Part shown: piece after piece, positions 48,463 through 62,610 of the stretch
Layout: each line of letters starts with the position of its first letter
Numbering within the stretch: position 1 is the first letter of the stretch
DNA from: Phreatobacter sp.
GTDB lineage: Bacteria; Pseudomonadota; Alphaproteobacteria; Rhizobiales; Phreatobacteraceae
DNA length: 64,000 nt
NCBI RefSeq assembly: GCF_022843985.1
Contig: NZ_JALHMP010000002.1
Location: 1 to 64,000 of the forward strand
Direction: 5' to 3'
The notes under the pieces: generated by a model
What the model saw: only the letters and a program-made list of their open reading frames with translations
Told to the model about the DNA's origin: nothing
Database searches by the model: none
Translations under genes and position numbers: made by a program

Positions 48463-49674
48463 ATGGCACGAGTATCCGGAGCAAAGCTGCAGGGCCATGT
48501 GCCCCGCCTGGCTCCTCCAGGGCGACCGCTGGGGATCCTGGCGCTCGGCGCGATCCTGATGGTCTCGTCCGGCTGTAACGACCAACCGACGCGCGCCGCC
48601 GCCAACCCTGCGGTTCCGGCCCCTGTGGCTGTGACGGTGGTGACACTGGAGCGCCGCGAGATTCCCGTGACATCGGTGATGCCCGGTCGCACCGCGCCCT
48701 ATCGGGCTGCAGAGGTCCGTCCGCAGGTGGGCGGTCTTCTCCGCGAACGCCATTTCGCCGAGGGGGAAGCGGTGAAGGCGGGCCAGTCGCTGTTCCAGAT
48801 CGATCCGGCGCCGTTCGAGGCTGCCGTGCGGCGTGCCGAGGCGGCGCTCTCCCGCATCGAGGCCGCCGAGCAGGCCGCGTCCAGTACCGCCAATCGCTTG
48901 CGCACGCTGGCGCGGGCGCAGGTCGTGAGCGAGCAGACCCTCGAAAATGCCGAAGCGACGCTGCGCCAGACCCGGGCCGACATCATCTCGGCCCGGGCCG
49001 CCCTTGAGACCGCCCGCATCGACCTCAGCTACACCCGCGTCGCCTCGCCGATCGACGGCCGCACCGGTCGCGCCAGCGTCACGCCCGGCGCGCTCGTCAC
49101 GGCCAACCAGACCACCGCGCTCGTGACGGTCACCCAGCTCGATCCGATCTATGTCGACCTGACGCAGCCCAGCGCCGTCCTGCTGCAGCAGCGGCGCGAC
49201 GTTGCCAGCGGCGTTCTGCGCCGCGACTCGGCAGACCGCGCGACGGCGCGGCTGCTCCTCGAGGACGGCTCCGAATATCCCCATGCCGGCGAGGTCCAGT
49301 TCTCCGAGGTGATCGTCGATCAGGGCACCGGCTCGGTCACGGTGCGGGCAGTGTTCCCCAATCCCGACCAGCTTCTGCTGCCCGGCATGTTCGTCCGCGC
49401 CCGCGTCGAGGAGGGGGTGACCGACCGCGCCATCCTCGTCCCGCAGCGGGCCGTGCTACGGACGCCGCGCGGTGAGCCCATGGCCTTCGTGGTCAACACC
49501 GAAGGGGTCGTCGAACAGCGCGTGTTGCGCGCCAGCCGGACCGTCGGCAACGACTGGCTGGTGACGGATGGTGTGACGGCGGGCGAACGAGTGGTCTTCG
49601 AGGGGCTACAGCGCATCCGCCAGGGTACCCGCGTCCAGGCCACCGAGCGCCCCGCCGCCCCGGCCGGGACATAG
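48463..49674 (+). CDS. RND multidrug efflux periplasmic adaptor (AcrA/MexA family)
   Basis: 403 residues from ATG 48463 with GAGG upstream; longer upstream frames are rejected. Lipoprotein signal with lipobox ending SSGC (Cys40 region), so it is anchored to the inner membrane. Barrel-sandwich halves YRAAEVRPQVGGLLRERHFAEGEAVKAGQ and YTRVASPIDGRTGRASVTPG flank an alpha-hairpin coiled coil; beta-barrel and membrane-proximal domains follow (LLLPGMFVRARVEEG, ILVPQRAVLRTPRGEP). It bridges the HAE1 pump 7 nt downstream and an outer-membrane factor encoded elsewhere. Confidence 0.95.
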   Translation: MARVSGAKLQGHVPRLAPPGRPLGILALGAILMVSSGCNDQPTRAAANPAVPAPVAVTVVTLERREIPVTSVMPGRTAPYRAAEVRPQVGGLLRERHFAEGEAVKAGQSLFQIDPAPFEAAVRRAEAALSRIEAAEQAASSTANRLRTLARAQVVSEQTLENAEATLRQTRADIISARAALETARIDLSYTRVASPIDGRTGRASVTPGALVTANQTTALVTVTQLDPIYVDLTQPSAVLLQQRRDVASGVLRRDSADRATARLLLEDGSEYPHAGEVQFSEVIVDQGTGSVTVRAVFPNPDQLLLPGMFVRARVEEGVTDRAILVPQRAVLRTPRGEPMAFVVNTEGVVEQRVLRASRTVGNDWLVTDGVTAGERVVFEGLQRIRQGTRVQATERPAAPAGT

Positions 49675-49681
49675 CCCGCCC

Positions 49682-52600
49682 ATGGCTCGCTTCTTCATCG
49701 ACCGGCCGGTCTTCGCCTGGGTCATCGCGATCGCCATCATGATCGCCGGCCTGCTGGCCCTGCGCAACATGGCGGTGGCGCAGTACCCGGCCATTGCGCC
49801 GCCCGCCATCTCCATCAATGTGGTGTTCCCCGGTGCCTCCGCGGAGACCGTCCAGACCACTGTGGTGCAGGTCATCGAGCAGCAGTTGAGCGGCATCGAC
49901 AACCTGCTCTACTTCGATTCACAGACCTCCAAGGATGGCGCGGCCCGTATCCAGCTGACCTTCGCGCCCGGCACCAATGCCGATACGGCCCAGGTGCAGG
50001 TCCAGAACCGCGTGCAACTTGCGGTTCCCCGTCTGCCGCTGACGGTGCAGCAGCAGGGCCTGCGCGTCGTCAAATCCTCCGGCAATTTCCTGCTCGTGGT
50101 CGGGTTCATATCGACCGACGGCCGGATGGAACGCACGGACATTTCCGATTTCCTTGTTGCCAATGTGCAGGATCCGATCAGCCGGACTCCCGGCGTCGGC
50201 GATTACCAGGTCTTCGGGGCGCAGTTCGCCATGCGCATCTGGCTCGACCCCGCCAGACTGATCAATTTCGGGCTGACGCCCTCGGATGTCGCGGCAGCGG
50301 TGCGGGCGCAGAACGTGCAGGTCTCCAGCGGCGAGATGGGCGGGCTCCCTGCGGTGCCCGGCCAGCAGCTCAACGCCACCATCGTCGGACCTTCCTATCT
50401 GCAGACCGTGGAGGAGTTCGGGGCCATCCTCATGCGCGTCCGCCCCGACGGATCGCAGGTGCGCCTGCGCGACGTAGCGCGCGTCGAGATCGGCGGCGAG
50501 AACTACTCCATCACCACCCAGTTGGATGGAAAGCCCTCCAGCGGCATCGGCATCCGCCTCGCCAGCGGCGCCAATGCGCTCGATACGGCCGCGGCGGTCC
50601 GCGCCACCATCGACCGGCTCCGACCGAGCTTCCCGCCGGGTCTGGAGGTCGCCTATCTCCAGGACACTACCCCTTTCGTGCAGCGCTCCATCAAGAGCGT
50701 CATCCTGACCTTGCTGGAGGCGGTGGCCCTGGTCTTCGTCGTGATGTTCATATTCCTGCAGAACTTCCGCGCGACCCTTATCCCGACCATGGCGATCCCT
50801 GTGGTCCTTCTGGGCACCTTCGCGGTGCTGCAGGCGCTGGGTTTCAGCGTCAACACCCTGACGATGTTCGGGCTCGTGCTGGCCATCGGCCTGCTGGTCG
50901 ATGACGCCATCGTCGTCGTCGAGAATGTCGAGCGCGTCATGGCGGAGGAACATCTCTCTCCGCTGGAAGCCACGCGGAAGTCGATGGACCAGATCACCGG
51001 CGCCCTCGTGGGCATCGGCCTGGTGCTGTCGGCGGTTTTCCTGCCGATGGCCTTCTTCGGTGGATCGGTGGGCGTCATCTACCGGCAGTTCTCCGTAACC
51101 ATCGCCACGGCCATGACCTTGTCGGTCCTCGTGGCGATCTTCTTCACGCCGGTCCTCTGCGTCTCCTTGCTGCGGCCGCACAAGCCGGGCCAGGGCACGC
51201 GCGGCGTCTACGGCTGGTTCAACCGTGGCTTCGACCGCATCACCCGCGGCTATGTCGGCGGCGTTCGCGCCAGCATGCGCCGGCCGGCGCGGATGCTGGT
51301 GATCTACGTCGCCTTGCTGGGCGCCCTCGGCTACAGCTTCCTGCGGCTGCCCGGCGGGTTCCTGCCGAATGAGGACCAGGGTATCGCCTTCGCGCAGGTG
51401 ACCACGCCACCCGGTGCAACCGCTGACCGCACCCAGCGCGCGCTGGACGATCTGGGTCGCTATCTCCGTGAGGAAGAGAGCGCCGTTGTCGACAATTTCT
51501 TCGCCATCAACGGGTTCAGCTTCGGCGGCCGCGGGCAGAATTCGGGGCTCGGTTTCATCACGCTGCGTGACTGGGACGTGCGGCCCGGCCAGCAGAACAG
51601 CGTCCAGGCCCTGACGGAGCGGGTCAACGCGCGCTTCGCGCGCTACCAGGACGCCCTGATCACCGCCTCGGCGCCGCCAGCCGTCCGCGAGCTGGGCAAT
51701 GCCTCCGGCTTCGCCCTGCAGCTTCTCGATCGCGGCGGTCTCGGCCACGGCGCGCTGATGGCCGCGCGCGATCAGTTGCTGCGGCTCGCCGCGGCGAGCC
51801 CGGTCCTGTCGCGCGTGCGCGCCAATGGTCTGAACGACGAGGCACAGTTCCGCCTCATCGTGGATTGGGAACGTGCCAGCGCCCTCGGCCTGTCAGTCAC
51901 CGAGGTGAACTCCACCCTGGCCACCGCCTGGGGCGCGACCTATGTCAACGACTTCCTCGACCGCGGGCGGGTCAAGCGCGTCTTCATGCAGGGGCAGCCG
52001 GATGCCCGCATGGTCCCCGGCGATCTCGACAAATGGTTCGTGCGCAACGCGCAGGGGCAGATGGTGCCGTTCTCCGCCTTCGGCCGCACCGAATGGGAAT
52101 TCGGTTCGCCCCGTCTCGAACGGTTCAACGGGATTGCGTCGCGGGAGATCCAGGGCTTGCCGGCGCCCGGCTACACCACCGGCCAGGCCATGGACGAGAT
52201 GGAACGGCTTGTGGCGCAACTGCCCGGCGGCTTCGGCTTCGAGTGGAGCGGCATCTCGTTCCAGGAGCGGCAATCCTCCGGCCAGGCCCTGGCGCTCTAC
52301 CTGCTGTCGCTTCTGGTGGTCTTCCTCTGCCTGGCGGCACTCTACGAGAGCTGGTCGATCCCGACCGCCGTCTTGCTGGCGGTCCCGCTCGGCGTGCTGG
52401 GGGCCGTGCTCGCCTCTCTGTATGGCGGCATGTCCAATGACGTCTACTTCCAGGTCGGCCTGTTGGCCACGATCGGTCTGACCGCCAAGAACGCCATCCT
52501 CATCGTGGAGTTTGCCCGCGAGGGCTATAACCGTGGCCTGTCGCTCGTCGATGCCGCGGAGGAGGCGGCGCGCCAGCGGCTGCGGCCAATCATCATGACC

Positions 52601-52834
52601 TCGCTCGCCTTCACCCTCGGTGTCGTGCCGCTGGCCATCGCCAGCGGTGCAGGTTCGGGCGCCCAGAATGCGATCGGCGTCGGTGTGATCGGCGGGGTGG
52701 TCGCCGGCACGGTGCTCGCGGTTCTGTTCGTGCCCGTCTTCTTCGTCCTCGTTCTGCGCATGTTCCGCACCAGGCGGTCCGGTGAAGGGGCTGCGGCGGT
52801 GGCCCGGGTCGAGGCCGCTCCGGCGGGCGAGTAG
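49682..52834 (+). CDS. RND multidrug efflux permease (AcrB/HAE1 family)
   Basis: 1050 residues. Starts MARFFIDRPVFAWVIAI, the standard HAE1 opening. Helix 4 has GLLVDDAIVVVENVERVM, with the paired Asp of the proton relay; periplasmic porter and docking domains occupy both loops; FFGGSVGVIYRQFSVTI and LEAVALVFVVMFIFLQNFRATLIPT are further hallmarks. A proton-driven trimeric exporter of drugs, detergents or dyes. Operon is adaptor-permease only, with no outer-membrane channel or TetR regulator in the window. Confidence 0.96.
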   Translation: MARFFIDRPVFAWVIAIAIMIAGLLALRNMAVAQYPAIAPPAISINVVFPGASAETVQTTVVQVIEQQLSGIDNLLYFDSQTSKDGAARIQLTFAPGTNADTAQVQVQNRVQLAVPRLPLTVQQQGLRVVKSSGNFLLVVGFISTDGRMERTDISDFLVANVQDPISRTPGVGDYQVFGAQFAMRIWLDPARLINFGLTPSDVAAAVRAQNVQVSSGEMGGLPAVPGQQLNATIVGPSYLQTVEEFGAILMRVRPDGSQVRLRDVARVEIGGENYSITTQLDGKPSSGIGIRLASGANALDTAAAVRATIDRLRPSFPPGLEVAYLQDTTPFVQRSIKSVILTLLEAVALVFVVMFIFLQNFRATLIPTMAIPVVLLGTFAVLQALGFSVNTLTMFGLVLAIGLLVDDAIVVVENVERVMAEEHLSPLEATRKSMDQITGALVGIGLVLSAVFLPMAFFGGSVGVIYRQFSVTIATAMTLSVLVAIFFTPVLCVSLLRPHKPGQGTRGVYGWFNRGFDRITRGYVGGVRASMRRPARMLVIYVALLGALGYSFLRLPGGFLPNEDQGIAFAQVTTPPGATADRTQRALDDLGRYLREEESAVVDNFFAINGFSFGGRGQNSGLGFITLRDWDVRPGQQNSVQALTERVNARFARYQDALITASAPPAVRELGNASGFALQLLDRGGLGHGALMAARDQLLRLAAASPVLSRVRANGLNDEAQFRLIVDWERASALGLSVTEVNSTLATAWGATYVNDFLDRGRVKRVFMQGQPDARMVPGDLDKWFVRNAQGQMVPFSAFGRTEWEFGSPRLERFNGIASREIQGLPAPGYTTGQAMDEMERLVAQLPGGFGFEWSGISFQERQSSGQALALYLLSLLVVFLCLAALYESWSIPTAVLLAVPLGVLGAVLASLYGGMSNDVYFQVGLLATIGLTAKNAILIVEFAREGYNRGLSLVDAAEEAARQRLRPIIMTSLAFTLGVVPLAIASGAGSGAQNAIGVGVIGGVVAGTVLAVLFVPVFFVLVLRMFRTRRSGEGAAAVARVEAAPAGE

Positions 52835-52857: not shown

Positions 52858-54924
52858 TCATGCCGGCCGAGGACGCCCGCCCGTCGATGCTGCCACGGGC
52901 GTCCCGGCCGAGAACAGGAAACCCTGGCCCGCATCGCAGCCAGCCCCCCGCAGGAAGTCCCGCTGATCTTCGGTTTCGATCCCCTCGGCGACCACCTTGA
53001 TGTCGAGGGCATGGGCGAGATCGATCATCGCCTTGACGATTGTCCCGCTGCGGCCGACGAGCGACATGCCGCTGACGAAGGACCGGTCGATCTTGATCCA
53101 GTCGATCGGATAGTCGCGCAGGTGGATGAGTGATGCGTGGCCGGTGCCGAAATCGTCGAGCGCGATCGACACTCCCGCGCGCGCGAGTTCGGCGATCGCC
53201 GCCTCGACGGCCTGCGAGTTCTCGCCCAGGAACACCGTCTCGGTCACCTCGATCCGCAATGAGGACGGCGGCAGGGCGAGCTGCTCCAGCCGGTCAAGCA
53301 CGGTCCGGGCATAGTCGCCACCGTTGAACGTATGTTCGGACGCGTTCAATGCGACGATCCCGGGGTCTTTCCCGGCCTGGCGCCAAATGGCCATCTGTTC
53401 CGTCACCAGGATCAGCATGCGCTCGTCGATAATGCGCAGGCTCTCGGGATCGGACATCGCCGCCCAGAATGCCGAGGGGCCCACCAATTCGCCGCCACCG
53501 GTGCGCAGCCGCACCAAGGCCTCGCATCCGAGTTCACGCCCGTCGGCGAGGTCGAGACAGGGTTGGAAGGCGGGGACGATGCCGCCGGCAAGGCCGGCTT
53601 CGCGAACCATCTCGATGGCCCCGCGCCGCGCGGTGAACTGAGCGCCGATATTTGGGCTGTAGCTGCTCGTTCGCGCCCGGCCTGAACGCTTGGCCGCATA
53701 GAGGGCAAGGTCAGCAAAGCGGAGAAGATCCTCGGCCGTCGCTGCATCGAACGGGTAGTAGGCGATGCCGATCGACCCCGAGACATAGAGCCAGTCTCCG
53801 CAGAACGGCACCCCGCGTCGGACGGCGTTGAGGATGGCCTCGGCCCGCGCCTCGACTGCCGATCGATCCTCCGTGTTGGCGAGCAGGATCGCGAACTCGT
53901 CGCCGCCGAGGCGCGCGCAGTCCAGTTCGGGGAACAGGGCTCTCAGCCGTCCCGCCACCGACCGCAGCACCTCGTCGCCCGCATCGTGACCGCGCGTATC
54001 GTTCACCTCCTTGAAGCCGTCGAGATCGAGCAGCAGAAGCGCGACGCTGCCGGTTGCTCCGGCCGCGCCGATCATCTCACGCAGCCGCTTCTGGAATAGC
54101 GTGCGATTGGGGATGCCGGACAGCCCGTCGATATGGGCACTGCGCCACAGCTGAAGCTCGGCTTCATGCTGCTCGGTGACGTCCTGGACGACGCCCACAA
54201 GCCGCTTGGGCCGTCCGCCCCAGCGCTCGAGTTCGCCCGTCGCACGCACATATCTGAGCCGGCCCTTGGCGGTGACCAGCCCGGCATCAAAGCGAAAGGG
54301 CAGGCCCGTCGCGCGCGTTTGCGCGAGGTGACGGCGCACACGCTCCCTGTCCTCCTCGAGGTAGAACAGCAACGCCTCGCCGGTGGTCGGCAGGGCACCG
54401 ATCGGCAGGTCATGCAGGATGAAGACCTGATCCGACCACGTCATCTCCTTCGTGTCGAGGTCGATCGACCAGGCCCCGATGGAGGCGAGGCCCTCGACCT
54501 GTCGCAGCCACGAACTGCGGGTCTCCGCCACCTCCCTCAAGGCGGCGAGTTCCCGCTCGTAGACGCGCCGCTGCCGCGCCTCGAACACGACGAACTGGAT
54601 CGCGTCGGCATCGGCGGCCGCCGTGACCAGAACATCGAGGCGCGTGTTGTCCGGACCCATCAGTGTCAGGGCAACCTCCCGGAAACCCCTGTCGAGCCGG
54701 AGCATCGGGGAGAGATGGGTCTCGAAGAACGTCCGGCCCGCGACCGAAAGAAAGTCGGAGAAGCGGAGCTGCCCGACCACATCCTCGGCGGTCCGGCCGA
54801 TCCAGCCGAGCAATGTACTGTTGGCAACGCGGACCACGCCTTCGACATCGGTCGACAGAAGACCGGCGGGAGCCTGATCGAAGAAGTTGTCGGCGAACGA
54901 CCGGTCAGACCCGTCCATGGGCAT
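52858..54924 (-). CDS. PAS-PAS-GGDEF-EAL bifunctional c-di-GMP protein
   Basis: 688 residues, no membrane helix. PAS1 about 10-125 (FDQAPAGLLSTDVEGVVRVANSTLLGWIGRTAEDVVGQ), PAS2 about 145-255 with EHEAELQ linker, GGDEF about 262-425 with intact LGGDEF (340-344), EAL about 435-675. The EAL set is complete: CEALVRL (Glu468), NASEHTF, EVTET, DDFGTG, KIDRSFV, EGIE. Both synthesis and breakdown of c-di-GMP are possible. The ATG lies inside the end of the RsbQ-like hydrolase gene (20-nt overlap), so the two are co-translated. PAS1 begins only about 10 residues in and is the likely docking or ligand site for the hydrolase or its product. Confidence 0.93.
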   Translation of the reverse strand: MPMDGSDRSFADNFFDQAPAGLLSTDVEGVVRVANSTLLGWIGRTAEDVVGQLRFSDFLSVAGRTFFETHLSPMLRLDRGFREVALTLMGPDNTRLDVLVTAAADADAIQFVVFEARQRRVYERELAALREVAETRSSWLRQVEGLASIGAWSIDLDTKEMTWSDQVFILHDLPIGALPTTGEALLFYLEEDRERVRRHLAQTRATGLPFRFDAGLVTAKGRLRYVRATGELERWGGRPKRLVGVVQDVTEQHEAELQLWRSAHIDGLSGIPNRTLFQKRLREMIGAAGATGSVALLLLDLDGFKEVNDTRGHDAGDEVLRSVAGRLRALFPELDCARLGGDEFAILLANTEDRSAVEARAEAILNAVRRGVPFCGDWLYVSGSIGIAYYPFDAATAEDLLRFADLALYAAKRSGRARTSSYSPNIGAQFTARRGAIEMVREAGLAGGIVPAFQPCLDLADGRELGCEALVRLRTGGGELVGPSAFWAAMSDPESLRIIDERMLILVTEQMAIWRQAGKDPGIVALNASEHTFNGGDYARTVLDRLEQLALPPSSLRIEVTETVFLGENSQAVEAAIAELARAGVSIALDDFGTGHASLIHLRDYPIDWIKIDRSFVSGMSLVGRSGTIVKAMIDLAHALDIKVVAEGIETEDQRDFLRGAGCDAGQGFLFSAGTPVAASTGGRPRPA

Positions 54925-55789
54925 CGCTCAGATAGCGACGCATCTGCGCGACGACCTCTTCGGGATGGCTGACATGCGGACAATGTCCCGTCGCCGCGAG
55001 CTGGACGAACTGTGCCTGAGGCAGGTTGTCGGCGACGTATCGGCCGACAACCTCCGACGCGATCACGTCCTGCGAGCATTGCAGGACGAGCGCCGGCTTG
55101 CCCATGCGGGGCAGGTCATCCCGCGTATCCGAGAAAAAGGTGACACGCGCGAAATGGGCGGCGATAGCGGGATCGGTCCGGCAGAAGCTCTCCTCAAGTT
55201 CGGCTGCAAGGTCCGGACGATCGGGATTGCCCATGATCGCAGGCGCCATCGTGCTCGACCAGCCAAGGAAGTTGCTCGACAGCAGGTCGAGCATCTCCTC
55301 CAGCGCATCCACCGAGAAACCGCCACGGTAGTCGCCATCGTCGAGATAGCATGGGGACGGCCCGATGAGGATCAGGTCCGAGAAGCGCTCGGGGCGGAGA
55401 AGCGCGGCGCGGATTCCAATGCTGGCGCTGACCGAATGGCCGACGAACACGACGTCGCGGAGATCCAGAGCCTCACAGATCGACACCACGTCCTCGGCAT
55501 AGCCGTCGAGCGTCGCATAGCGTGCTGGGTCGAATGCAGCGAGGTCCGATCTGCCGGCGCCGACGTGGTCGAAGAGGATCAGCCGAAAGTCGTCCTGAAA
55601 GGCGGGCACCAAGGCCTTCCACATGTTCTGGTCACAGCCGAAACCATGGGCGAACACCATGGGCCCCGCGCCGGATCCGACGATGCGAATGGCGTGGCGC
55701 TGCCTCACCGCGTTCGCGTCTCCGTCGCTGGCGCGCGGATGGGACGACCGCGCCATGGAGACGGAAGCTTTCTCGAGCGCCATCGTCAT
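54905..55789 (-). CDS. RsbQ-like alpha/beta hydrolase
   Basis: 294 residues from ATG 55789. A GTG at 55708 with GGAG upstream would give a more typical RsbQ length, so the start is uncertain. FAHGFGCDQNMWKALVPAF, FDHVGAGRSD and VGHSVSASIGIRAA match RsbQ closely. The triad is Ser119, Asp241, His269; its spacing is nearly that of RsbQ (Ser96, Asp219, His247). In Bacillus, RsbQ turns over a small hydrophobic molecule and activates the PAS-bearing phosphatase RsbP; plant KAI2/D14 receptors share the fold. Here the downstream overlapping gene is a PAS-containing c-di-GMP protein, so the hydrolase probably supplies its signal. Confidence 0.88.
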   Translation of the reverse strand: MTMALEKASVSMARSSHPRASDGDANAVRQRHAIRIVGSGAGPMVFAHGFGCDQNMWKALVPAFQDDFRLILFDHVGAGRSDLAAFDPARYATLDGYAEDVVSICEALDLRDVVFVGHSVSASIGIRAALLRPERFSDLILIGPSPCYLDDGDYRGGFSVDALEEMLDLLSSNFLGWSSTMAPAIMGNPDRPDLAAELEESFCRTDPAIAAHFARVTFFSDTRDDLPRMGKPALVLQCSQDVIASEVVGRYVADNLPQAQFVQLAATGHCPHVSHPEEVVAQMRRYLSDAHGRV

Positions 55790-55871: not shown

Positions 55872-56320
55872 GTGTTTATGGCGCTCGACAAGTGGGTGCT
55901 GCGCCGGATTGTGACGGCTGAGAGGATCGCACCGGCGCCATGGGGCCGTCCCACCGTCAGCGAGGCCTGTGAGAGGGCATGCCGCGACGAAGGTGGCCAT
56001 GACAACGCCCAGCGCTGGGCACTTGACCATTTCGCCCGCACGCGGCACGAGCCCTTCGACGCCTGCTTCACCGTCACGCCGGAACGGTTGGGGCGTGCCG
56101 GTCATGGCCTGCATGACGTGATGCACGTTGCACAGAGCCAGTACCACGACATCGCCGTGGCCCGGCAACGCGGCCAAAAGGTCTGCTGGATCGAGCGCCG
56201 GGCCGGCAAGCCGATTCGGGCGGGACGATCGATGCCGCCTTCACCGAGCCGGACTACCGCTTCACCACCCTGACGGGTCTCGCCGACGCCTGCGATGCCG
56301 GTGCGATCCGGATGACATGA
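55872..56320 (+). pseudogene. Frameshifted C-terminal remnant of a HAD-superfamily (haloacid dehalogenase type II-like) hydrolase
   Basis: The plus frame from 55872 reads with strong third-position GC through HVAQSQYHDIAVARQRGQ and KVCWIERRAGKPI. It then must shift by one frame near 56220 to continue GGTIDAAFTEPDYRFTTLTG to a TGA at 56318-56320. HVAQSxYHD...A...G.....WI.RR.G...GG is the C-terminal signature of type II haloacid dehalogenase-like proteins, including the motif with the conserved Asp. The N-terminal half with the DxD/T nucleophile is missing. Both truncation and frameshift argue for a dead gene. Confidence 0.7.
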
Positions 56321-56401
56321 CCGCAGTCGGGATCGAGACCCAGCATGACGCGGCTTCCGGAATCGGTATTCATGAAAAGGCGCGTCCGCAGCAGACGAGC
56401 G

Positions 56402-57397
56402 TCAGTGCGCCGCCTGCCGAAAGGCAGGGATCACCTCGCGGGCGAACAAGCGCATGGCCTGGAGCGCGGGCTCAGTGCCGACAACGCCGTTGCCATTGAA
56501 GACGCAGCGGATCTGGTCGATCCCGCGCCGCCGTGCCAACGCGGCCAATTGCCGGTGGCATTGATCGGGATCGCCCCAGATGAAGCGTTCAGCCAAAAGC
56601 TGCGCGCGACCAACCGGGGGACTGGCGCGTCCCTGCAGCGTTGCGAAATGGCGACGGCGCGCCTCCAGTCCTGCCAGCAGCGGATCGAGCTGGCCGGCCG
56701 CCTCGGCCACTGTGCGGCCGATGACGACATAGCGCGACAGCGAGGACGAGGCGAGCCTCGGCGCGATCGCCCGGGTCTCGGCCAGGGCGAGATAGATGGC
56801 GAGCTGGCGGTCTTCCGGGGGCTCGAGGCTCAGCAGAAGCGGCAAGCCTTCGGCAAGGGCGAAGCCCAGGGTTTCCGGCGTCGATCCCGCGACATAGATG
56901 GGCGGGTGAGGCACCTGCACTGGCCGCGGGCCGATCATCGCCTCCCCGTAATGCCAGGGTCCTCGTGCCGTGGGGACGCCGCCTGTGGTGAGCGCCTGGC
57001 GCAGCAGGCAATAGGCCTGCTCGAACCGGGCGCGGGCCTCCTCATGGGGAATGCCCAGCGTTGCGAAAGTGGCAGGATCGGTGCCGCGTCCGATCCCGAT
57101 GTCGAGGCGGCCGCCGCTCTGCAGGTCGAGTTGGCCGATCTCCTCGGCGAGGGTCAGCGGATGGTGCAGCGGCAAAACCAGCACCGATGTGCCGACCCGC
57201 AACCGTTCGGTGCGGGCAAAGATCGCGGCGGCCAGCAGATGCGGCGAGGGATAGGCAATGCGCGGCTGGTGAAACCGGAACTCGTTGAACCAGACCCCGT
57301 CGAAGCCGAGTCTGTCCGCCTCCTCGAAAATGGCGAGAAAGTCGCGATGGTCCATCGCTGTGGCTTCGCGCGTCCAGCCGGCCAGGTCGATGCGCAT
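56402..57397 (-). CDS. LLM-class (luciferase-like) flavin-dependent oxidoreductase in the B12 operon
   Basis: 331 residues. Bacterial luciferase-like TIM barrel: FDGVWFNEFRFHQPRIAYPSP, RLRVGTSVLVLPLHHPLTLAEEIGQLDLQSGGRLDIGIGRGTDP and PHPPIYVAGSTPETLGFA are typical of FMN- or F420-binding LLM proteins. The ATG overlaps the stop of the ABC ATPase by 1 nt (ATGA-type TGATG), so it is the last gene of the cobalamin-riboswitch operon. Reduced-flavin monooxygenase or a corrinoid/base modifying role is conceivable; no B12 function is established for this family as far as I know. Confidence 0.85.
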   Translation of the reverse strand: MRIDLAGWTREATAMDHRDFLAIFEEADRLGFDGVWFNEFRFHQPRIAYPSPHLLAAAIFARTERLRVGTSVLVLPLHHPLTLAEEIGQLDLQSGGRLDIGIGRGTDPATFATLGIPHEEARARFEQAYCLLRQALTTGGVPTARGPWHYGEAMIGPRPVQVPHPPIYVAGSTPETLGFALAEGLPLLLSLEPPEDRQLAIYLALAETRAIAPRLASSSLSRYVVIGRTVAEAAGQLDPLLAGLEARRRHFATLQGRASPPVGRAQLLAERFIWGDPDQCHRQLAALARRRGIDQIRCVFNGNGVVGTEPALQAMRLFAREVIPAFRQAAH

Positions 57398-58149
57398 CAG
57401 TCCCTCCCGCAGACAGGGCGGGCGATGGTGACGCCGCCGGACACCATCGTCTCGAAGGCGACGCCGAACACCGTGGCGAGGACGCCCGAACGCACCACGG
57501 CACCGGCAGTGTCAACCGCGACGAGGCGGCCTTCATCCATCACCAAAAGCCGGTCGCACCAGGCGGTCGCGAGCTCGATATCGTGCAGCACGGCGACGAC
57601 GAGGCGCGTGCGGCCACGCGCCGCCAGCCGGCCCATGAGCCGGATACGGTGGCCGATGTCGAGGCTGGCACCGGGCTCGTCGACGACGAGGACGGCCGGG
57701 TCGGCGACAGTGACCGCGGCGAACAGGGCGCGGGCCTTCTCGCCGCCGGAGAGGGTCGACCAGAGGCGGTCGCCATGGCCGTCGAGGCCAGCCTCCGACA
57801 GCGCCGATCGCACGATTCCCGGGGGCAGGTCGGGCCGGCGCGCTGCGCCCATCTCCACCAGCATGCGGGGGCTGATGTCCCAGTGGGGCGTGAAGGCCTG
57901 CGGCATGTAGCCGATCATCGCCGCGCGGCGCGCCGCAGCCAGCGCAGTCACGTCCTCCTCGCCGATCCGGATCGCGCCGGCATGGGCTTCGGGCTGGCCG
58001 GCCAGGAGGCGGGCCAGCGTCGATTTGCCTGCCCCGTTTGGACCGAGAAGACCGACGAGCCCTTGGCCGGGGCAGGTGAAGCTGACGTCGTCGAGGATCG
58101 GGCGGCCGGCCCGCATGACCGTCAGCTTGTGGACCACGAGACCGGTCAT
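57397..58149 (-). CDS. btuD: ABC transporter ATPase, cobalamin/iron-chelate type (BtuD/FecE-like)
   Basis: 250 residues from ATG 58149; longer upstream frame overlaps the permease and is rejected. Walker A GPNGAGKST (about 34-42), Q-loop YMPQAF, signature LSGGEKARA, Walker B AVLVVDEP, H-loop VLHDIE. The family powers BtuCD/FecCD importers. ATG overlaps the permease stop (ATGA). The B12 assignment comes from the riboswitch and gene order, not from the ATPase itself. Confidence 0.92.
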   Translation of the reverse strand: MTGLVVHKLTVMRAGRPILDDVSFTCPGQGLVGLLGPNGAGKSTLARLLAGQPEAHAGAIRIGEEDVTALAAARRAAMIGYMPQAFTPHWDISPRMLVEMGAARRPDLPPGIVRSALSEAGLDGHGDRLWSTLSGGEKARALFAAVTVADPAVLVVDEPGASLDIGHRIRLMGRLAARGRTRLVVAVLHDIELATAWCDRLLVMDEGRLVAVDTAGAVVRSGVLATVFGVAFETMVSGGVTIARPVCGRD

Positions 58150-59165
58150 GGCCGCAGCCGCCGGGCGAGCAGAACCAGAAAGAAGGGGCCGCCGGCGAGG
58201 GCCGTGATGAGCCCGAGCGGGATTTCCGCCGGTGGCAGGGCTGCCCGGGCGAGAGCGTCTGCCAGCACGACCGCGATGGCCCCGATCAGCGCCGAGGCGA
58301 GGATCAGGGGGCGATGCCGCGGCCCGACGAGGCTGCGGCCGAGATGCGGCGCCGCAAGGCCGATGAAGGCGACCAGTCCACCGAAGGCGACGGCGACGGC
58401 AACCACTGCGGATCCGACGAGGATCGTCACCGCGATGAAGCCCTTCACATCGAGACCAAAGCTGCGTGCCATGTCCTCGCCGAGGCCGAGGAGATCCAGC
58501 CCGCGCGCGGTGGTCAGCGCCAGAAGGAGGCATGCTCCGGTCAGAACGGCGAGGGCTGCGAGCCCGGCTGTCCCCGGCGTCTGGATGCCGCCGAGCATCC
58601 AGCTCAGCACGACCTGGAGGCTGATGCTCTCGTCGGAGAGGGCGAGCATGAGGAAGGAGCGCAGCGCCCCGAGGATCGCCGCGACGGCGACCCCGGCCAG
58701 CAGCAGGCCGGCGGCATCGACGACCCCGGAGACGCGGCCGATGAGCAGAACCATGACGGTGGCGCTCCAGGCGCCGCAGAAGGCGAGCACCGGGAGGGTC
58801 ACGGCTTGTGGCATGCCGAGCGGCACGAGCAGGGCGACAGTCGCCCCGACCGCGGCGCCGCCCGCCGATCCCAGGAGATAGGGCTCGGCCAGGGGGTTGC
58901 GGAACAGGCCCTGGAACAGGCAGCCACCGATGCCGAGCAATGCCCCGACAAAGGCAGCCGCCAGCACGCGCGGCAGGCGCCAGTCGGTGATGAGGCGGCT
59001 GTCGAGGGAACCATCCCCGGTCAGCGCTGCCAGCAGACGGGCCGGCGAGGCCCAGTCATGGCCGGCCGCGAGCCCCACACAGACGGCCAATGCCAGACCG
59101 AGGCCCAGCAACATCGCGAGCCGGATGGTGAAGCCGTCCCGGGGGGGTGTGATCGCCGCATTCAT
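58146..59165 (-). CDS. btuC: ABC transporter permease, FecCD/BtuC family
   Basis: 339 residues with about ten helices. FecCD motifs: RLPRVLAAAFVGALLGIGGCLFQGLFRNPLAEPYLLGSAGGAA near the first third, and FGGLVAFIGLAAPHLGRSLVGPRHRPLI toward the C-terminus, which contacts the ATPase. ATG overlaps the binding-protein stop by 4 nt. Forms the inner-membrane channel for the corrinoid delivered by the periplasmic protein. Confidence 0.93.
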   Translation of the reverse strand: MNAAITPPRDGFTIRLAMLLGLGLALAVCVGLAAGHDWASPARLLAALTGDGSLDSRLITDWRLPRVLAAAFVGALLGIGGCLFQGLFRNPLAEPYLLGSAGGAAVGATVALLVPLGMPQAVTLPVLAFCGAWSATVMVLLIGRVSGVVDAAGLLLAGVAVAAILGALRSFLMLALSDESISLQVVLSWMLGGIQTPGTAGLAALAVLTGACLLLALTTARGLDLLGLGEDMARSFGLDVKGFIAVTILVGSAVVAVAVAFGGLVAFIGLAAPHLGRSLVGPRHRPLILASALIGAIAVVLADALARAALPPAEIPLGLITALAGGPFFLVLLARRLRP

Positions 59166-60064
59166 GCCGGCCGCTCCCAGGCGACGTCGCCGAGTCGCGT
59201 GGCGAGAGCTTCGATGCCGTCGACGACCCGCGGGCCGGGAATGAGGAACGCGGCACGGTTGACGGCGAAGAGCCGTCCGGTCCGGCGTGCCGCAAGGCCT
59301 GCCCAGGCCGGGGCGTCGAAGAGGTCCCGCATCGCCGCTTCGGTGCCGGCGAAGAGGATGCAGTCAGGATCGGCGCGAAGGATGGCTTCGGGGGAGACCT
59401 GCGGCAGGAGCCGTCGGCCTTCCAGGGCGTCCCGCGTGCCGGCGGCGCGCGCCGCATCGGCCGTATAGCTGTCCGGCCTGGCGACGAGCAGCAGGCCTGT
59501 AGAAACCCGGCCGGTGATCATCAGAGCCCTCGGGCGAGGCCGCGAGGCGGTCCGGGCGGCCACTGCGGCCAGACGCCTCTCGAGGTGCCGTGCCATGGTC
59601 TCGCCCGCCTCGGGGACACCGCCGGCGCGGGCGACGAGGCGCAGATTGGCAAGCACCGCGGCGAGGGTGGGGTGGGTCAGCACCATGACCGGAATGCCCA
59701 GGCGCTCCAGCGGGTCAACCAGTTGGTGGACGGCCTGCCGCGCCGGCGTGACGATGACGAGGTCCGGCCGCAGGCCGGCAATGCGGTCCACGGAAAAGCC
59801 AAGCCTTCCGCCGACCTGCGGCAGGCCCGCAATGGCCGGCGGAAACCGGGTATAGGCTTCGACGCCGACGATCCGGTCGGTGAGACCGGCCGCAACCACC
59901 AGTTCGGTGTTGGAGGCGAAGATGGGAACGATCCGCCGCGGCGGGGTGGGGAGTACGATCCGTCGTCCGAGCGCGTCGACGATCTCCTCCGATGCGGCGA
60001 CAGGCGCGGCGAGGGTCATCCCCGCCGCGCCGAGAGCCATGACAAATCCGCGGCGGCTTGTCAT
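59162..60064 (-). CDS. btuF: Periplasmic cobalamin/iron-chelate-binding protein (BtuF-like)
   Basis: 300 residues from ATG 60064; the longer frame overlaps the receptor gene. Tat-like signal (TSRRGFVMALGAAGMTLAAPVAAS, 2-25). Class III binding-protein fold: RRIVLPTPPRRIVPIFASNTELVVAAGL, VGVEAYTRFPP, LRPDLVIV and, after the long linker helix, SPEAILRADPDCILF. It starts 5 nt after the btuB stop. Tat export of such a protein is unusual though the RR is not followed by the perfect consensus. Confidence 0.9.
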   Translation of the reverse strand: MTSRRGFVMALGAAGMTLAAPVAASEEIVDALGRRIVLPTPPRRIVPIFASNTELVVAAGLTDRIVGVEAYTRFPPAIAGLPQVGGRLGFSVDRIAGLRPDLVIVTPARQAVHQLVDPLERLGIPVMVLTHPTLAAVLANLRLVARAGGVPEAGETMARHLERRLAAVAARTASRPRPRALMITGRVSTGLLLVARPDSYTADAARAAGTRDALEGRRLLPQVSPEAILRADPDCILFAGTEAAMRDLFDAPAWAGLAARRTGRLFAVNRAAFLIPGPRVVDGIEALATRLGDVAWERPA

Positions 60065-60069
60065 GGCGC

Positions 60070-62241
60070 TCAGAATGCCGCCTTGAGGCCGAAGACGATT
60101 TCCCGGCCCGGCATGGAATTTCCCATGTTGCCGATGCCGTTGGTATTGGCGACCGCGGGGTTGCCAAGGAAGGGCTGCTGGTCGAGCGCGATGAACAAGG
60201 CGTGCTGGTTGACGTTGAAGATGTTGTTCACCGCGACATAGGCGGTCAGGCCCTTGCGCAATTCGCCCTCCAGCCTGGCGTTCCAGACCCAATAGCTGGG
60301 CTTCTGATGGATGAAGGTGCTGGACGGCTCGCCTGCCGGGATCAGCAGCGCCTCCTCGGTGTCGTACCAGATCGGTCCGCGCAGGATGCCGGTCACAGAG
60401 AAGGTCCAGGGAATGGCGGCCCCGGTCCTCTGGCCGAAGCGGGTGCCGATCGCCGCCTGGAATTTGTAGGCCCGCTGGACCTGACGGGAATTGGCGGTGG
60501 GGGCGGCGCCGAAGTCCCTCATATCGAAATTGTAGCCGCCATTGGCGAAGATCGACCAATGCCAGCCGCCGGGCTGTGCCACGAAGGCGCGCATGACGTC
60601 GAGGTTCGCCTGGAGTTCCAGACCGCGGATGACGATGTCACCGGGATTGTTGACGAAATCGGAGACGTTGAGCGCCCCCGCCCGCCGCTGCGAGATGATC
60701 CGCTGCGAGATCGTGTTCTGGAACAGGGCGGCGTCGATGCTGAGACCGTTCCAGGCGAAGGTGGTTCCGATCTCGTACTGGCGGCTCGTTTCGGGCCGAA
60801 GATTGGAATTGCCGAAGACCAGGCCGCCGGCAAGGACCGTGTAATTGCCGGCGAGTTCCGTCGCAGTCGGTGCGCGGAAACCGGTCGACAGGCCAGTGCG
60901 GAAGCTCAGGTGCTCGGTGGCCCTGACAGTCCCGCCGACGGTGTAGGTGGTGGATGTGTAGGGCCGCGAGCCGGTCTGCTGGTTGGCAAGGTTGGGTGTC
61001 GGGTCGAAGCTGGTGGAGCCCCGGGTGTGGCGAAGGCCTGCCCGCAGCACCAGCCGGTCGTCGAAGAGCCGCTGGCTGCTCTCGGCATAGAAGGCCATCA
61101 GCGATTCGGTCTGGTTCGCATCCTGCGGTGCGACCTGGGCCATGGTGTAGGGCGGATTGATCGCTTCCCGGTAACGGGCGGACCGCAGCCAGCTGCGCTC
61201 CAGATTGACGCCAAGCAGCAGTTCATTGCCGGGGAACAGGGTGAAGATGGGCTCGAACTTCGTCCCCATGATGGTCAGGTGGCGGCGGTTGATGTCGAGC
61301 CGCGTGCCGCCGCCGCGCGAGGCCCAGCGGAAGATGTCCTGGTCCTCGACGAGGTAGCTGTGCGAGGTCCATCTGGCGAAATCGGTTGCCGCCCGGCCTG
61401 TATAGACGAAGTCGAACGACGCGTTGGTGCGCTGGTCGCGGTTGAACGTGCTCCACGACGACCCGCGGAAACCGGCATTGTAAATGCCGTCGGAGCGAAC
61501 CGTGATGTCGATGCGGTTGAGGTCGTTCAACTGGTGGCCGAAGGCGCCGGTAACGCCGAGGCGCTGCCATTGGGTGTTGCCCATCAGGCCGCCTCCGGCG
61601 CCCGACGAATAGCTGTCGCGCCTCCCGCCGGAGAGGCCGATATAATAGTCCATCGTGCCATGCTGGCCGGCCGTGTGGGCGCGCCCCTGCACGAGGCCCC
61701 ATGAGCCGCCCTGGATCTCGGCGGCGCTGCCGGAGGTGTTGCGGCCGTTGCGCAGGATGATGTTGATGACGCCGCCCATGGCGCCCGACCCGTAGATCAC
61801 CGAGGCTGGCCCGCGGATCACCTCGATCCGCTCGACATCGGCCGGCGAAAGCTTCGAGATGTTGGCGGTGCCGGCGCGACGGCCGTTGATCAGGACGAGC
61901 ACCTGACTGCGGAAATCCTTACCCTGACCGTCCGAGGCCCCGCCGCGGATGTTGATGGAGGTCTGGCCGGGCGTCCATTCGGAGAAGAAGCCGACGGCGT
62001 TGTCCGAGAGGAGTTCGGTCACTGAGCGGGCGTTCGACCGGCTGATGGCTTCGCTGTCGATCACCTGGACGGTGCCGGTGGTGCGGCTGCGCGGCTCGGG
62101 TCGGCCTGTCGAGGTGACCACGATCTCATCGAGGATGGTCGGCGGCGTCGTTCGGTCTTGCGCAGCGGCGGGAGACGAAAAGGCACACAAAAAAGCAATG
62201 AGCGGGGCAGCCGGCCGGCGCCCGCAGACAAGAATAGACAT
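60070..62241 (-). CDS. btuB: TonB-dependent outer-membrane receptor, cobalamin type (BtuB-like)
   Basis: 723 residues from ATG 62241, fixed by AAGGAGAAATCG; the open frame upstream runs through the riboswitch. Signal peptide 1-27, TonB box around DEIVVTS (38-44), plug domain to about 150 with NIRGGASDGQG, LVLINGRRAG, ERIEVIRGPASVIYGSGAMGGVINI, then the 22-strand barrel ending in Phe (GLKAAF). The upstream cobalamin riboswitch and downstream BtuFCD-type genes identify vitamin B12 or a related corrinoid as the likely cargo. Confidence 0.93.
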   Translation of the reverse strand: MSILVCGRRPAAPLIAFLCAFSSPAAAQDRTTPPTILDEIVVTSTGRPEPRSRTTGTVQVIDSEAISRSNARSVTELLSDNAVGFFSEWTPGQTSINIRGGASDGQGKDFRSQVLVLINGRRAGTANISKLSPADVERIEVIRGPASVIYGSGAMGGVINIILRNGRNTSGSAAEIQGGSWGLVQGRAHTAGQHGTMDYYIGLSGGRRDSYSSGAGGGLMGNTQWQRLGVTGAFGHQLNDLNRIDITVRSDGIYNAGFRGSSWSTFNRDQRTNASFDFVYTGRAATDFARWTSHSYLVEDQDIFRWASRGGGTRLDINRRHLTIMGTKFEPIFTLFPGNELLLGVNLERSWLRSARYREAINPPYTMAQVAPQDANQTESLMAFYAESSQRLFDDRLVLRAGLRHTRGSTSFDPTPNLANQQTGSRPYTSTTYTVGGTVRATEHLSFRTGLSTGFRAPTATELAGNYTVLAGGLVFGNSNLRPETSRQYEIGTTFAWNGLSIDAALFQNTISQRIISQRRAGALNVSDFVNNPGDIVIRGLELQANLDVMRAFVAQPGGWHWSIFANGGYNFDMRDFGAAPTANSRQVQRAYKFQAAIGTRFGQRTGAAIPWTFSVTGILRGPIWYDTEEALLIPAGEPSSTFIHQKPSYWVWNARLEGELRKGLTAYVAVNNIFNVNQHALFIALDQQPFLGNPAVANTNGIGNMGNSMPGREIVFGLKAAF

Positions 62242-62251
62242 CGATTTCTCC

Positions 62252-62270
62252 TTCCGGCCCACCGCCGGAA
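62252..62270 (-). promoter_or_regulatory. Shine-Dalgarno-sequestering hairpin (riboswitch expression platform)
   Basis: On the transcript, TTCCGGC and GCCGGAA (plus positions 62264-62270 and 62252-62258) pair around a 5-nt loop. The 3' arm flows directly into GGAAGGAG, the btuB ribosome-binding site. This is a plausible translational OFF switch used when cobalamin binds upstream. Confidence 0.6.
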
Positions 62271-62280
62271 CAGGGTTGCA

Positions 62281-62462
62281 CACGTCCTCGGCCGGTCTCC
62301 TGGCTCGCGGGTCGACGCGCTCGATCACCCTTCCCGGCCCGAAGGCCAGTGGATATGCGAGGAGCACTCGCCGCTTACAGTTGCGGGGGCAGCCGTGGCT
62401 TTGGACGCGAAGGTCCGCACCACATTCCCGTTTCACTCCCCTGCAGGGGGGGAGCACCGAAA
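62281..62462 (-). promoter_or_regulatory. Cobalamin riboswitch
   Basis: Read on the minus strand, all landmarks occur in order: GAAACGGGAATGTGGTGCGG (5' core), CCACGGCTGCCCCCGCAACT, GTAAGCGGCGAG, ATCCACTGG, CCGGGAAGGGTGATCGAGCG and the B12 box GCCAGGAGACCGGCC (plus 62290-62304). It ends about 40 nt before the btuB start. Binding of adenosylcobalamin or a related corrinoid should turn off btuB and the four genes behind it. Confidence 0.93.
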
Positions 62463-62610
62463 GACGCATACACATGAGCAGACAATCTTGAGTGGAGCAA
62501 GACCGTCATGTGAAAAATGTTATACTATTACTCTTTACCCGCAAGCCCGGGCAGCCCTGGGAGCGTGCACGGGGCAGGTGGTAATCGATGCGACAGACAC
62601 CGGCATGAGT

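What the first reader, a model, noticed from the sequence alone, without database searches (positions are those of the whole stretch)
52858..55789. RsbQ-like hydrolase translationally coupled to a PAS-PAS-GGDEF-EAL protein
The hydrolase keeps RsbQ landmarks (FAHGFGCDQNMW, GHSVSAS) and triad spacing (Ser119, Asp241, His269), and its gene overlaps by 20 nt a soluble protein whose first domain is PAS. In Bacillus the RsbQ-RsbP pair uses the same hydrolase-plus-PAS logic to control sigma-B. Here the output is c-di-GMP turnover with intact GGDEF and EAL motifs. This would link an RsbQ/KAI2-like small-molecule signal directly to biofilm/motility control. Hydrolase-PAS pairs have been noted in bacteria, but the ligand and this c-di-GMP output look little described.
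Basis: partly seen in the sequence, partly recalled or inferred. Interest (0 to 1): 0.8.

Follow-up and report, generated by a model that had tools for sequence, protein, structure and literature searches.

The report
RsbQ hydrolase paired with c-di-GMP enzyme
A bacterial hydrolase related to the plant karrikin receptor sits in front of, and probably controls, an enzyme that makes and breaks the messenger c-di-GMP; this kind of pairing was described in 2011, so the gene pair looks like a new example of a known signalling module rather than a new kind of system.

Summary
In detail: a 294-aa RsbQ-like hydrolase (Ser119/Asp241/His269) overlaps by 20 nt a 688-aa PAS-PAS-GGDEF-EAL protein. Membership holds: PAS1 scores 118 bits against an RsbP-PAS profile built without Phreatobacter, PAS2 none; seven of nine published positions fit, including the four null ones. 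Each of the 80 nearest hydrolase loci has the PAS partner (one frame-broken): 56 kinase, 22 phosphatase, 1 GGDEF-EAL, 1 cut off. In the genus, hydrolase and RsbP-PAS occur together (2 of 12 genomes) or not at all. In another proteobacterial family 19 of 19 newly fetched loci have GGDEF output (query biased to it), and one genome carries an RsbQ-PAS-GGDEF fusion. c-di-GMP-linked hydrolases are not one clade (AU p=0.004). Over 76 kinase loci the hydrolase co-varies with PAS1 (r=0.70) more than with the kinase domain (0.42). Structure prediction left the contact undecided. Ligand, direction and physiological output are untested.

The parts
54905..55789 (-). RsbQ-family alpha/beta hydrolase, 294 aa, catalytic triad S119/D241/H269
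   Evidence: ORF; triad; PDB 1wom RsbQ E 5.6e-96, KAI2 about 1e-57; Pfam Abhydrolase_6
52858..54924 (-). PAS-PAS-GGDEF-EAL protein, 688 aa, no clear membrane stretch
   Evidence: ORF; Pfam; hydropathy
54905..54924 (-). 20-nt overlap of the two genes, in different frames
   Evidence: same overlap in L007
54541..54894 (-). PAS1, RsbP-PAS type (residues 11-128), the presumed docking site for the hydrolase; Falpha segment residues 64-73 (RTFFETHLSP)
   Evidence: 117.7 bits to an RsbP-PAS profile built from 74 loci without Phreatobacter; alignment A4
54187..54438 (-). PAS2, PAS_3 fold (residues 163-246), followed by D-V-T as in ordinary PAS domains
   Evidence: Pfam PAS_3; no match to the RsbP-PAS profile
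53674..54138 (-). GGDEF domain (residues 263-417), GGDEF at 340-344, no canonical I-site
   Evidence: Pfam 1.4e-39; motif check
52909..53610 (-). EAL domain (residues 439-672) with catalytic motifs present
   Evidence: Pfam 4.4e-57; motifs; aligns with PDB 4rnh, a 'motility regulator'

Best explanation
This is an RsbQ-PAS bipartite sensory module wired to c-di-GMP turnover. The hydrolase binds, and probably turns over, an unidentified small molecule in its Ser-His-Asp pocket. It then contacts PAS1 of the partner protein, most likely through the conserved Falpha face (F66 and H70, at the places of RsbP F55 and Y59). That contact changes PAS1 and the following helix, the change passes through PAS2, and it resets the balance of the GGDEF and EAL activities. 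Shown by computation here: the two genes, their families, the RsbP-type PAS1, pairing in the 80 nearest homologous loci, joint presence and absence in the genus, and co-variation of hydrolase with PAS1. Known from B. subtilis (PMC3183031), not from this organism: RsbQ-PAS binding and the need for the triad. Inferred: that the hydrolase regulates this enzyme, the route through PAS2, and that the dominant output is c-di-GMP breakdown (complete EAL motifs, no I-site).
For: RsbQ as best PDB match. PAS1 is RsbP-type, 117.7 bits, while PAS2 gives no hit; in the own genome the next best RsbP-PAS match is 32 bits against 143. Signature positions 7 of 9 by my mapping, with the four null positions kept in class: L59, F66, H70 (for Tyr) and E83. 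Downstream gene with a PAS1-like domain in 79 of the 80 nearest loci; in the 80th (L043) the PAS lies in a short frame before a kinase frame. Hydrolase in 2 of 12 Phreatobacter genomes and RsbP-PAS over 100 bits in the same 2 of 12. Natural RsbQ-PAS-GGDEF fusion in L113. Hydrolase distances follow PAS1 (r 0.70) more than the kinase domain in PAS1's protein (r 0.42; difference 0.27, 2.5-97.5% of 70% subsamples 0.17-0.34; 76 loci). RsbQ-RsbP contact by two-hybrid and pull-down in B. subtilis (PMC3183031).
Against: No experiment in this organism. Two AlphaFold2 runs on hydrolase joined to PAS1 gave pTM 0.74 and 0.75 with two well-folded domains; I judge that to be little above what two independent domains of these sizes would give (no control was run), so no interface is shown. 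Two signature positions are not kept: C10 is A20 and P86 is D97. A coiled coil was not looked for, and PAS2 stands between PAS1 and the output. Only 1 of the 80 nearest hydrolases, itself Phreatobacter, has GGDEF output. Ten of 12 congeners lack the pair. In more distant homologues the pairing is looser: 21 of 23 matches in the phylum sample have an RsbP-PAS partner or fusion, and 6 of 8 in the class sample, own genome counted in both. In the 20 phosphatase-linked pairs the excess of hydrolase-PAS over hydrolase-output correlation (0.60 against 0.40) has a subsample range that includes zero.
Confidence: 0.78

Rival explanations
1. Enzyme version of the best explanation: the hydrolase makes a product that it hands to the PAS1 pocket, and PAS1 is the real sensor (Model 1 of Nadezhdin et al.). 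Contact is needed only for delivery.
For: The catalytic triad is intact here and was needed for signalling in B. subtilis (PMC3183031 section 11).
Against: The 2011 paper says that no ligand had been found with RsbP-PAS; the conserved positions include the Falpha face whose mutation disrupts binding. Sequence data cannot separate this from the receptor version.
Confidence: 0.4
2. Receptor version of the best explanation: the hydrolase acts like the plant receptors KAI2/D14; ligand occupancy alone changes its contact with PAS1, and hydrolysis only resets it (Model 2 of the same paper).
For: Related to KAI2 and D14 by sequence; hydrolase co-varies with PAS1, more with its C-terminal half (r 0.73) than its N-terminal half (r 0.56).
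Against: Co-variation is also expected from joint inheritance and from the enzyme version; no bacterial ligand is known to me.
Confidence: 0.4
3. The two genes are only operon neighbours; the hydrolase is a metabolic esterase and does not regulate the GGDEF-EAL protein.
For: Compact bacterial genomes often overlap unrelated genes; no interface was predicted with confidence; 10 of 12 congeners live without the pair.
Against: Pairing in the 80 nearest loci from many phyla, joint presence in the genus, PAS1 more tied to the hydrolase than to its own kinase domain in kinase-linked relatives, and one natural fusion.
Confidence: 0.08
4. The pair feeds a sigma-B-type partner switch, as in Bacillus.
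For: Homology of the sensory half with RsbQ and RsbP-PAS.
Against: No phosphatase domain in the partner and no SpoIIE family match in the held draft genome (53 contigs, 100% complete by its listing), while the same search rang in B. subtilis among the controls.
Confidence: 0.02

Closest known systems
RsbQ-PAS bipartite sensing module (Nadezhdin, Brody, Price 2011, PMC3183031), in particular Psychromonas ingrahamii A1SX34
   Same: RsbQ homologue immediately upstream; RsbP-type PAS at the N-terminus; tandem GGDEF and EAL joined through a second, unrelated PAS (text of the paper)
   Different: Other organism and lineage (Phreatobacter); two of nine signature positions differ from the consensus; A1SX34 itself was not in hand and was not aligned
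RsbQ-RsbP of Bacillus subtilis
   Same: Hydrolase family and triad, PAS type, gene order
   Different: Output is GGDEF-EAL, not a PPM phosphatase; no SpoIIE family match in this genome
KAI2/D14 plant receptors
   Same: Related alpha/beta hydrolases; E about 1e-57 for KAI2
   Different: Weaker match than to RsbQ; partner is a PAS protein; ligand unknown
RsbU N-terminal domain with RsbT on a GGDEF protein in Moorella thermoacetica (named in PMC12143880, passages)
   Same: A stress-response input module moved onto a diguanylate cyclase
   Different: Different input proteins; no hydrolase

Membership tests
RsbQ-PAS module | RsbQ homologue encoded immediately upstream, same strand | tested here: met
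   20-nt overlap; RsbQ best PDB match
[quoted passage not shown]
   117.7 bits over residues 11-128; PAS2 no match
RsbQ-PAS module | Nine distinguishing positions (C10 L13 L48 Q53 F55 C56 Y59 E72 P86, or their 75% consensus classes) | tested here: met
   7 of 9: A20(no) L23 L59 R64 F66 F67 H70 E83 D97(no). Mapped by consensus and near-constant offset; RsbP was not in hand, and which class belongs to which position is my reading of the legend, as figures are not held.
RsbQ-PAS module | No DIT motif at the end of RsbP-PAS | tested here: met
   PAS1 ends ...FVVFEARQRR; PAS2 ends ...VVQDVTEQ (read off)
RsbQ-PAS module | Output is PPM phosphatase, histidine kinase or GGDEF | tested here: met
   GGDEF-EAL
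RsbQ-PAS module | Coiled coil between RsbP-PAS and output | not tested
   The 2011 paper lists proteins with extra PAS domains or with EAL among those lacking it
RsbQ-PAS module | Direct hydrolase-PAS contact | tested here: inconclusive
   AlphaFold2 pTM 0.74 and 0.75
RsbQ hydrolase family | Ser-His-Asp triad | tested here: met
   S119, D241, H269
RsbQ-RsbP sigma-B pathway | PPM phosphatase output | tested here: not met
KAI2/D14 receptor | Butenolide or lactone ligand and receptor action | not testable with these tools
   sequence kinship only
Bifunctional GGDEF-EAL enzyme | Catalytic motifs of both domains | tested here: met
   GGDEF, EAL, EVTE, DDFG, KID, AEGIE, QG; that these are the catalytic motifs is recalled; activity not testable

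The most novel reading that the evidence does not exclude
The RsbQ-PAS pair is a transferable small-molecule receptor cassette that has been placed on c-di-GMP enzymes several times independently. In Phreatobacter it stands where a congener's closest relative carries a GAF domain on a PAS-GGDEF-EAL chassis, so that a KAI2-like bacterial ligand would directly set c-di-GMP. The natural RsbQ-PAS-GGDEF fusion would make this testable in one polypeptide.
Probability: 0.35. Interest if true: 0.55.

Novelty: new member of a known kind. Interest (0 to 1): 0.3.

Why it matters
The ligand of bacterial RsbQ is unknown, and only the B. subtilis target was known when the module was defined (PMC3183031). 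A c-di-GMP enzyme should be an easier read-out than the sigma-B cascade: purified protein, GTP or c-di-GMP, with and without hydrolase. The natural fusion found here and the co-variation of hydrolase with PAS1 give concrete material for finding the contact and the ligand. The gene pair itself is an additional example, not a new mechanism.

Tried and rejected
Sigma-B output: rejected, no SpoIIE family match in the genome. Chance neighbours: judged unlikely. One clade of c-di-GMP-linked hydrolases: rejected by the AU test on 10 rows (p 0.004; short-search tree, and the group was named after seeing the tree, which weakens the test); L122 and L127, two distant GGDEF neighbours without RsbP-PAS, were not in it. 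The four alphaproteobacterial rows (window, L007, L114, L123) are one group in the best tree with support 55, so neither shown nor rejected. Contact by structure prediction: tried twice, inconclusive. A solved RsbP-PAS: none found by profile; the best PDB hit is a sensor-protein PAS at 29.7 bits. Papers on Phreatobacter and c-di-GMP: none in the library.

Known faults of my own scripts: the wrong downstream ORF was taken for L041; one search corrects it (phosphatase), but the tree still labels L041 'none', and the gap count uses the wrong ORF for it. The tree lost L018 because the wrong matched stretch was cut. Before the tree I left out 25 loci (second copies or shorter versions of loci kept, and L030 and L043); the co-variation sets leave out those and L018 and L094, 27 in all, and the 76-pair set also leaves out phosphatase- and GGDEF-linked loci. 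Gap lengths between genes use the first start codon after a fixed point and lean towards overlaps.
Full report
What is there. The hydrolase is 294 aa with S119, D241 and H269. Its best PDB match is B. subtilis RsbQ (1wom, E 5.6e-96), then an Oleispira hydrolase (3qvm) and the plant KAI2 and D14 families. The partner is 688 aa with PAS_3, GGDEF and EAL matches over Pfam cut-offs and a first PAS just under them. No clear membrane stretch was seen, the motifs of both output domains are kept, and the RxxD inhibition site is missing. The genes overlap by 20 nt, and so do those of a second Phreatobacter genome. The genus is named through that second genome: L007 (record title Phreatobacter sp., contig of 90411 bases) is G007, a congener of the window's genome.

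What is already known. A literature search with RsbQ, PAS domain and hydrolase gave ten papers. Nadezhdin, Brody and Price 2011 (PMC3183031; outline, abstract, section 4 parts 1 and 2, section 11 part 1 and find-passages seen) found 45 RsbQ/RsbP-PAS pairs with phosphatase, kinase or diguanylate cyclase output; three of the cyclases carry EAL, and P. [quoted passage not shown] That is the window's architecture. The eLife 2025 paper (PMC12143880, passages seen) models 2RsbP/2RsbQ by AlphaFold2 and cites the GGDEF coupling. Searches with RsbQ+GGDEF, RsbQ+diguanylate cyclase and hydrolase+PAS+diguanylate cyclase+RsbP gave two, four and three papers; RsbQ alone gave 121, of which 40 were listed, many about a Rett syndrome questionnaire. 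From these listings I saw no experimental test of an RsbQ-linked cyclase; I opened only the two papers named, and most subscription papers are not in the library.

Membership of PAS1. A profile built from 74 downstream PAS domains without Phreatobacter scores PAS1 at 117.7 bits and does not match PAS2. In the alignment the published positions map to A20, L23, L59, R64, F66, F67, H70, E83 and D97; seven fit the consensus classes of the paper, among them the four whose alanine change was null in B. subtilis, with His for Tyr at H70. The mapping uses the consensus and offsets of 10 or 11; RsbP itself was not in hand, and the class of each position is my reading of the legend. PAS1 lacks the DIT motif and PAS2 has D-V-T.

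Survey. Each of these 80 has an RsbP-type PAS downstream, 79 in an intact gene and one, L043, in a short frame followed by a kinase frame. Outputs: 56 kinase (L043 counted), 22 phosphatase, 1 GGDEF-EAL (the other Phreatobacter), 1 cut by a contig end (Pfam tallies on the 80, with the wrong ORF for L041). With the mechanical choice of start codon, 49 of 80 pairs overlap and 22 more lie 0-10 nt apart. In even samples, hydrolases of this type were found in 8 of 385 genomes of the class (E 1e-50) and 20 of 398 of the phylum (E 1e-40), own genome counted. Of the 23 phylum matches, 21 have an RsbP-PAS partner or fusion, 15 with kinase and 6 with GGDEF output, and 2 have none; of the 8 class matches 6 have such a partner, one has a kinase and one a GGDEF neighbour without recognisable RsbP-PAS. 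Among plasmids 68 records match at E 1e-40, 24 of them predicted conjugative.

c-di-GMP outputs elsewhere. L123, from the same order, has RsbQ + PAS-PAS-GGDEF-EAL (both PAS by my profiles; Pfam sees only GGDEF and EAL); L124 has PAS-GGDEF-EAL; L114 (Rhizobium rosettiformans plasmid) PAS-PAS-GGDEF; L115, L126, L133 and L142 PAS-GGDEF. In the family of genome G636 (unnamed; same phylum, another class), 37 of 196 genomes match, G636 included, and all 19 newly fetched loci, the best-scoring ones, are RsbQ + PAS-GGDEF. The query there was the fusion, which contains GGDEF, so this set leans towards GGDEF output. One gene of G636, L113, is a natural fusion of hydrolase, RsbP-PAS and GGDEF, 582 aa; its paralogue in the same genome is two genes in one frame separated by a TGA and 6 nt. 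Six other genomes have the same stretch in one frame with one or two stops; no other listed place spans it without a stop, so the fusion is a single case.

Origin. On the hydrolase tree (116 rows, short search) c-di-GMP output, 12 rows, needs six changes, two forced by starred branches; holding ten c-di-GMP-linked rows together is rejected (p 0.004; the group was chosen after seeing the tree). Among the loci fetched, the window's PAS1 is nearest, after its Phreatobacter copy, to phosphatase- and kinase-linked PAS domains (39-47% identity in the next nine), while its PAS2-GGDEF-EAL part is nearest to a congener's protein, 40% (L147), which has a GAF in the place of PAS1 and whose genome has no such hydrolase (G001). 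In the genus the hydrolase occurs in 2 of 12 genomes and RsbP-PAS over 100 bits in the same two; the other ten have matches of 35 bits or less. The block from about 49.9 to 55.9 kb, with the RND pump, is 90.6% identical between the two, and synteny ends near 56.3 kb.

Contact. In 76 kinase-linked pairs, hydrolase distances follow PAS1 (r 0.70) more than the kinase domain in PAS1's own protein (r 0.42), and PAS1 follows the hydrolase more than its own kinase domain (0.70 against 0.47) (a cruder version gave 0.69 and 0.38, and for 20 phosphatase pairs 0.60 and 0.40, where the subsample range of the difference includes zero). This says that hydrolase and PAS1 move as a unit; it does not by itself prove contact. 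AlphaFold2 on the natural fusion and on the window's hydrolase joined to PAS1 gave mean pLDDT 91.8 and 95.2 and pTM 0.74 and 0.75: both domains fold, their orientation is not decided. Most alignment rows were unpaired, no control run was made, and the tool gives no interface score.

Mechanism and verdict. The best reading is an RsbQ-PAS module that regulates c-di-GMP turnover through direct contact with PAS1. Receptor and enzyme versions cannot be told apart from sequence. The pair is a new member of a known kind; interest is modest because the biochemistry is open and easy to test here.

Noticed in passing
L113 583-2331 (-) (also L125, L141): Natural fusion RsbQ-PAS-GGDEF in one 582-aa frame; the paralogue L126 in the same genome is two in-frame genes separated by a TGA and 6 nt.
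   Followed up: partly
L147 1459-3708 (-): Congener protein GAF-PAS-GGDEF-EAL (its PAS under the Pfam cut-off), nearest non-RsbQ relative among fetched loci of the window's PAS2-GGDEF-EAL part: a GAF stands where the window has RsbP-PAS.
   Followed up: partly
window 57397-62475 (-): ABC ATPase, FecCD permease, periplasmic binding protein and TonB-dependent receptor: looks like an iron-complex uptake set upstream of the module (Pfam).
   Followed up: no
window 48463-52834 (+): HlyD-type fusion protein and AcrB-type RND pump, convergent with the module; the pump is syntenic with it in the second Phreatobacter.
   Followed up: partly
window 56067-56322: Stretch 88% identical to the end of a 236-aa gene upstream of the hydrolase in L007 (HAD-like by eye, not searched), where synteny ends: perhaps a gene remnant.
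   Followed up: partly
window 56402-57397 (-): Luciferase-like monooxygenase gene between module and iron-uptake set.
   Followed up: no
   Followed up: partly
L114 1-3913: Two more genes with GGDEF and EAL matches directly upstream of the RsbQ + PAS-PAS-GGDEF pair on a plasmid typed as conjugative, Rhizobium rosettiformans.
   Followed up: no
L116, L120: Catalase genes (and a superoxide dismutase family gene in L120) near plasmid-borne RsbQ + PAS-kinase pairs in Paracoccus marcusii and Variovorax paradoxus; a possible hint at oxidative stress.
   Followed up: no
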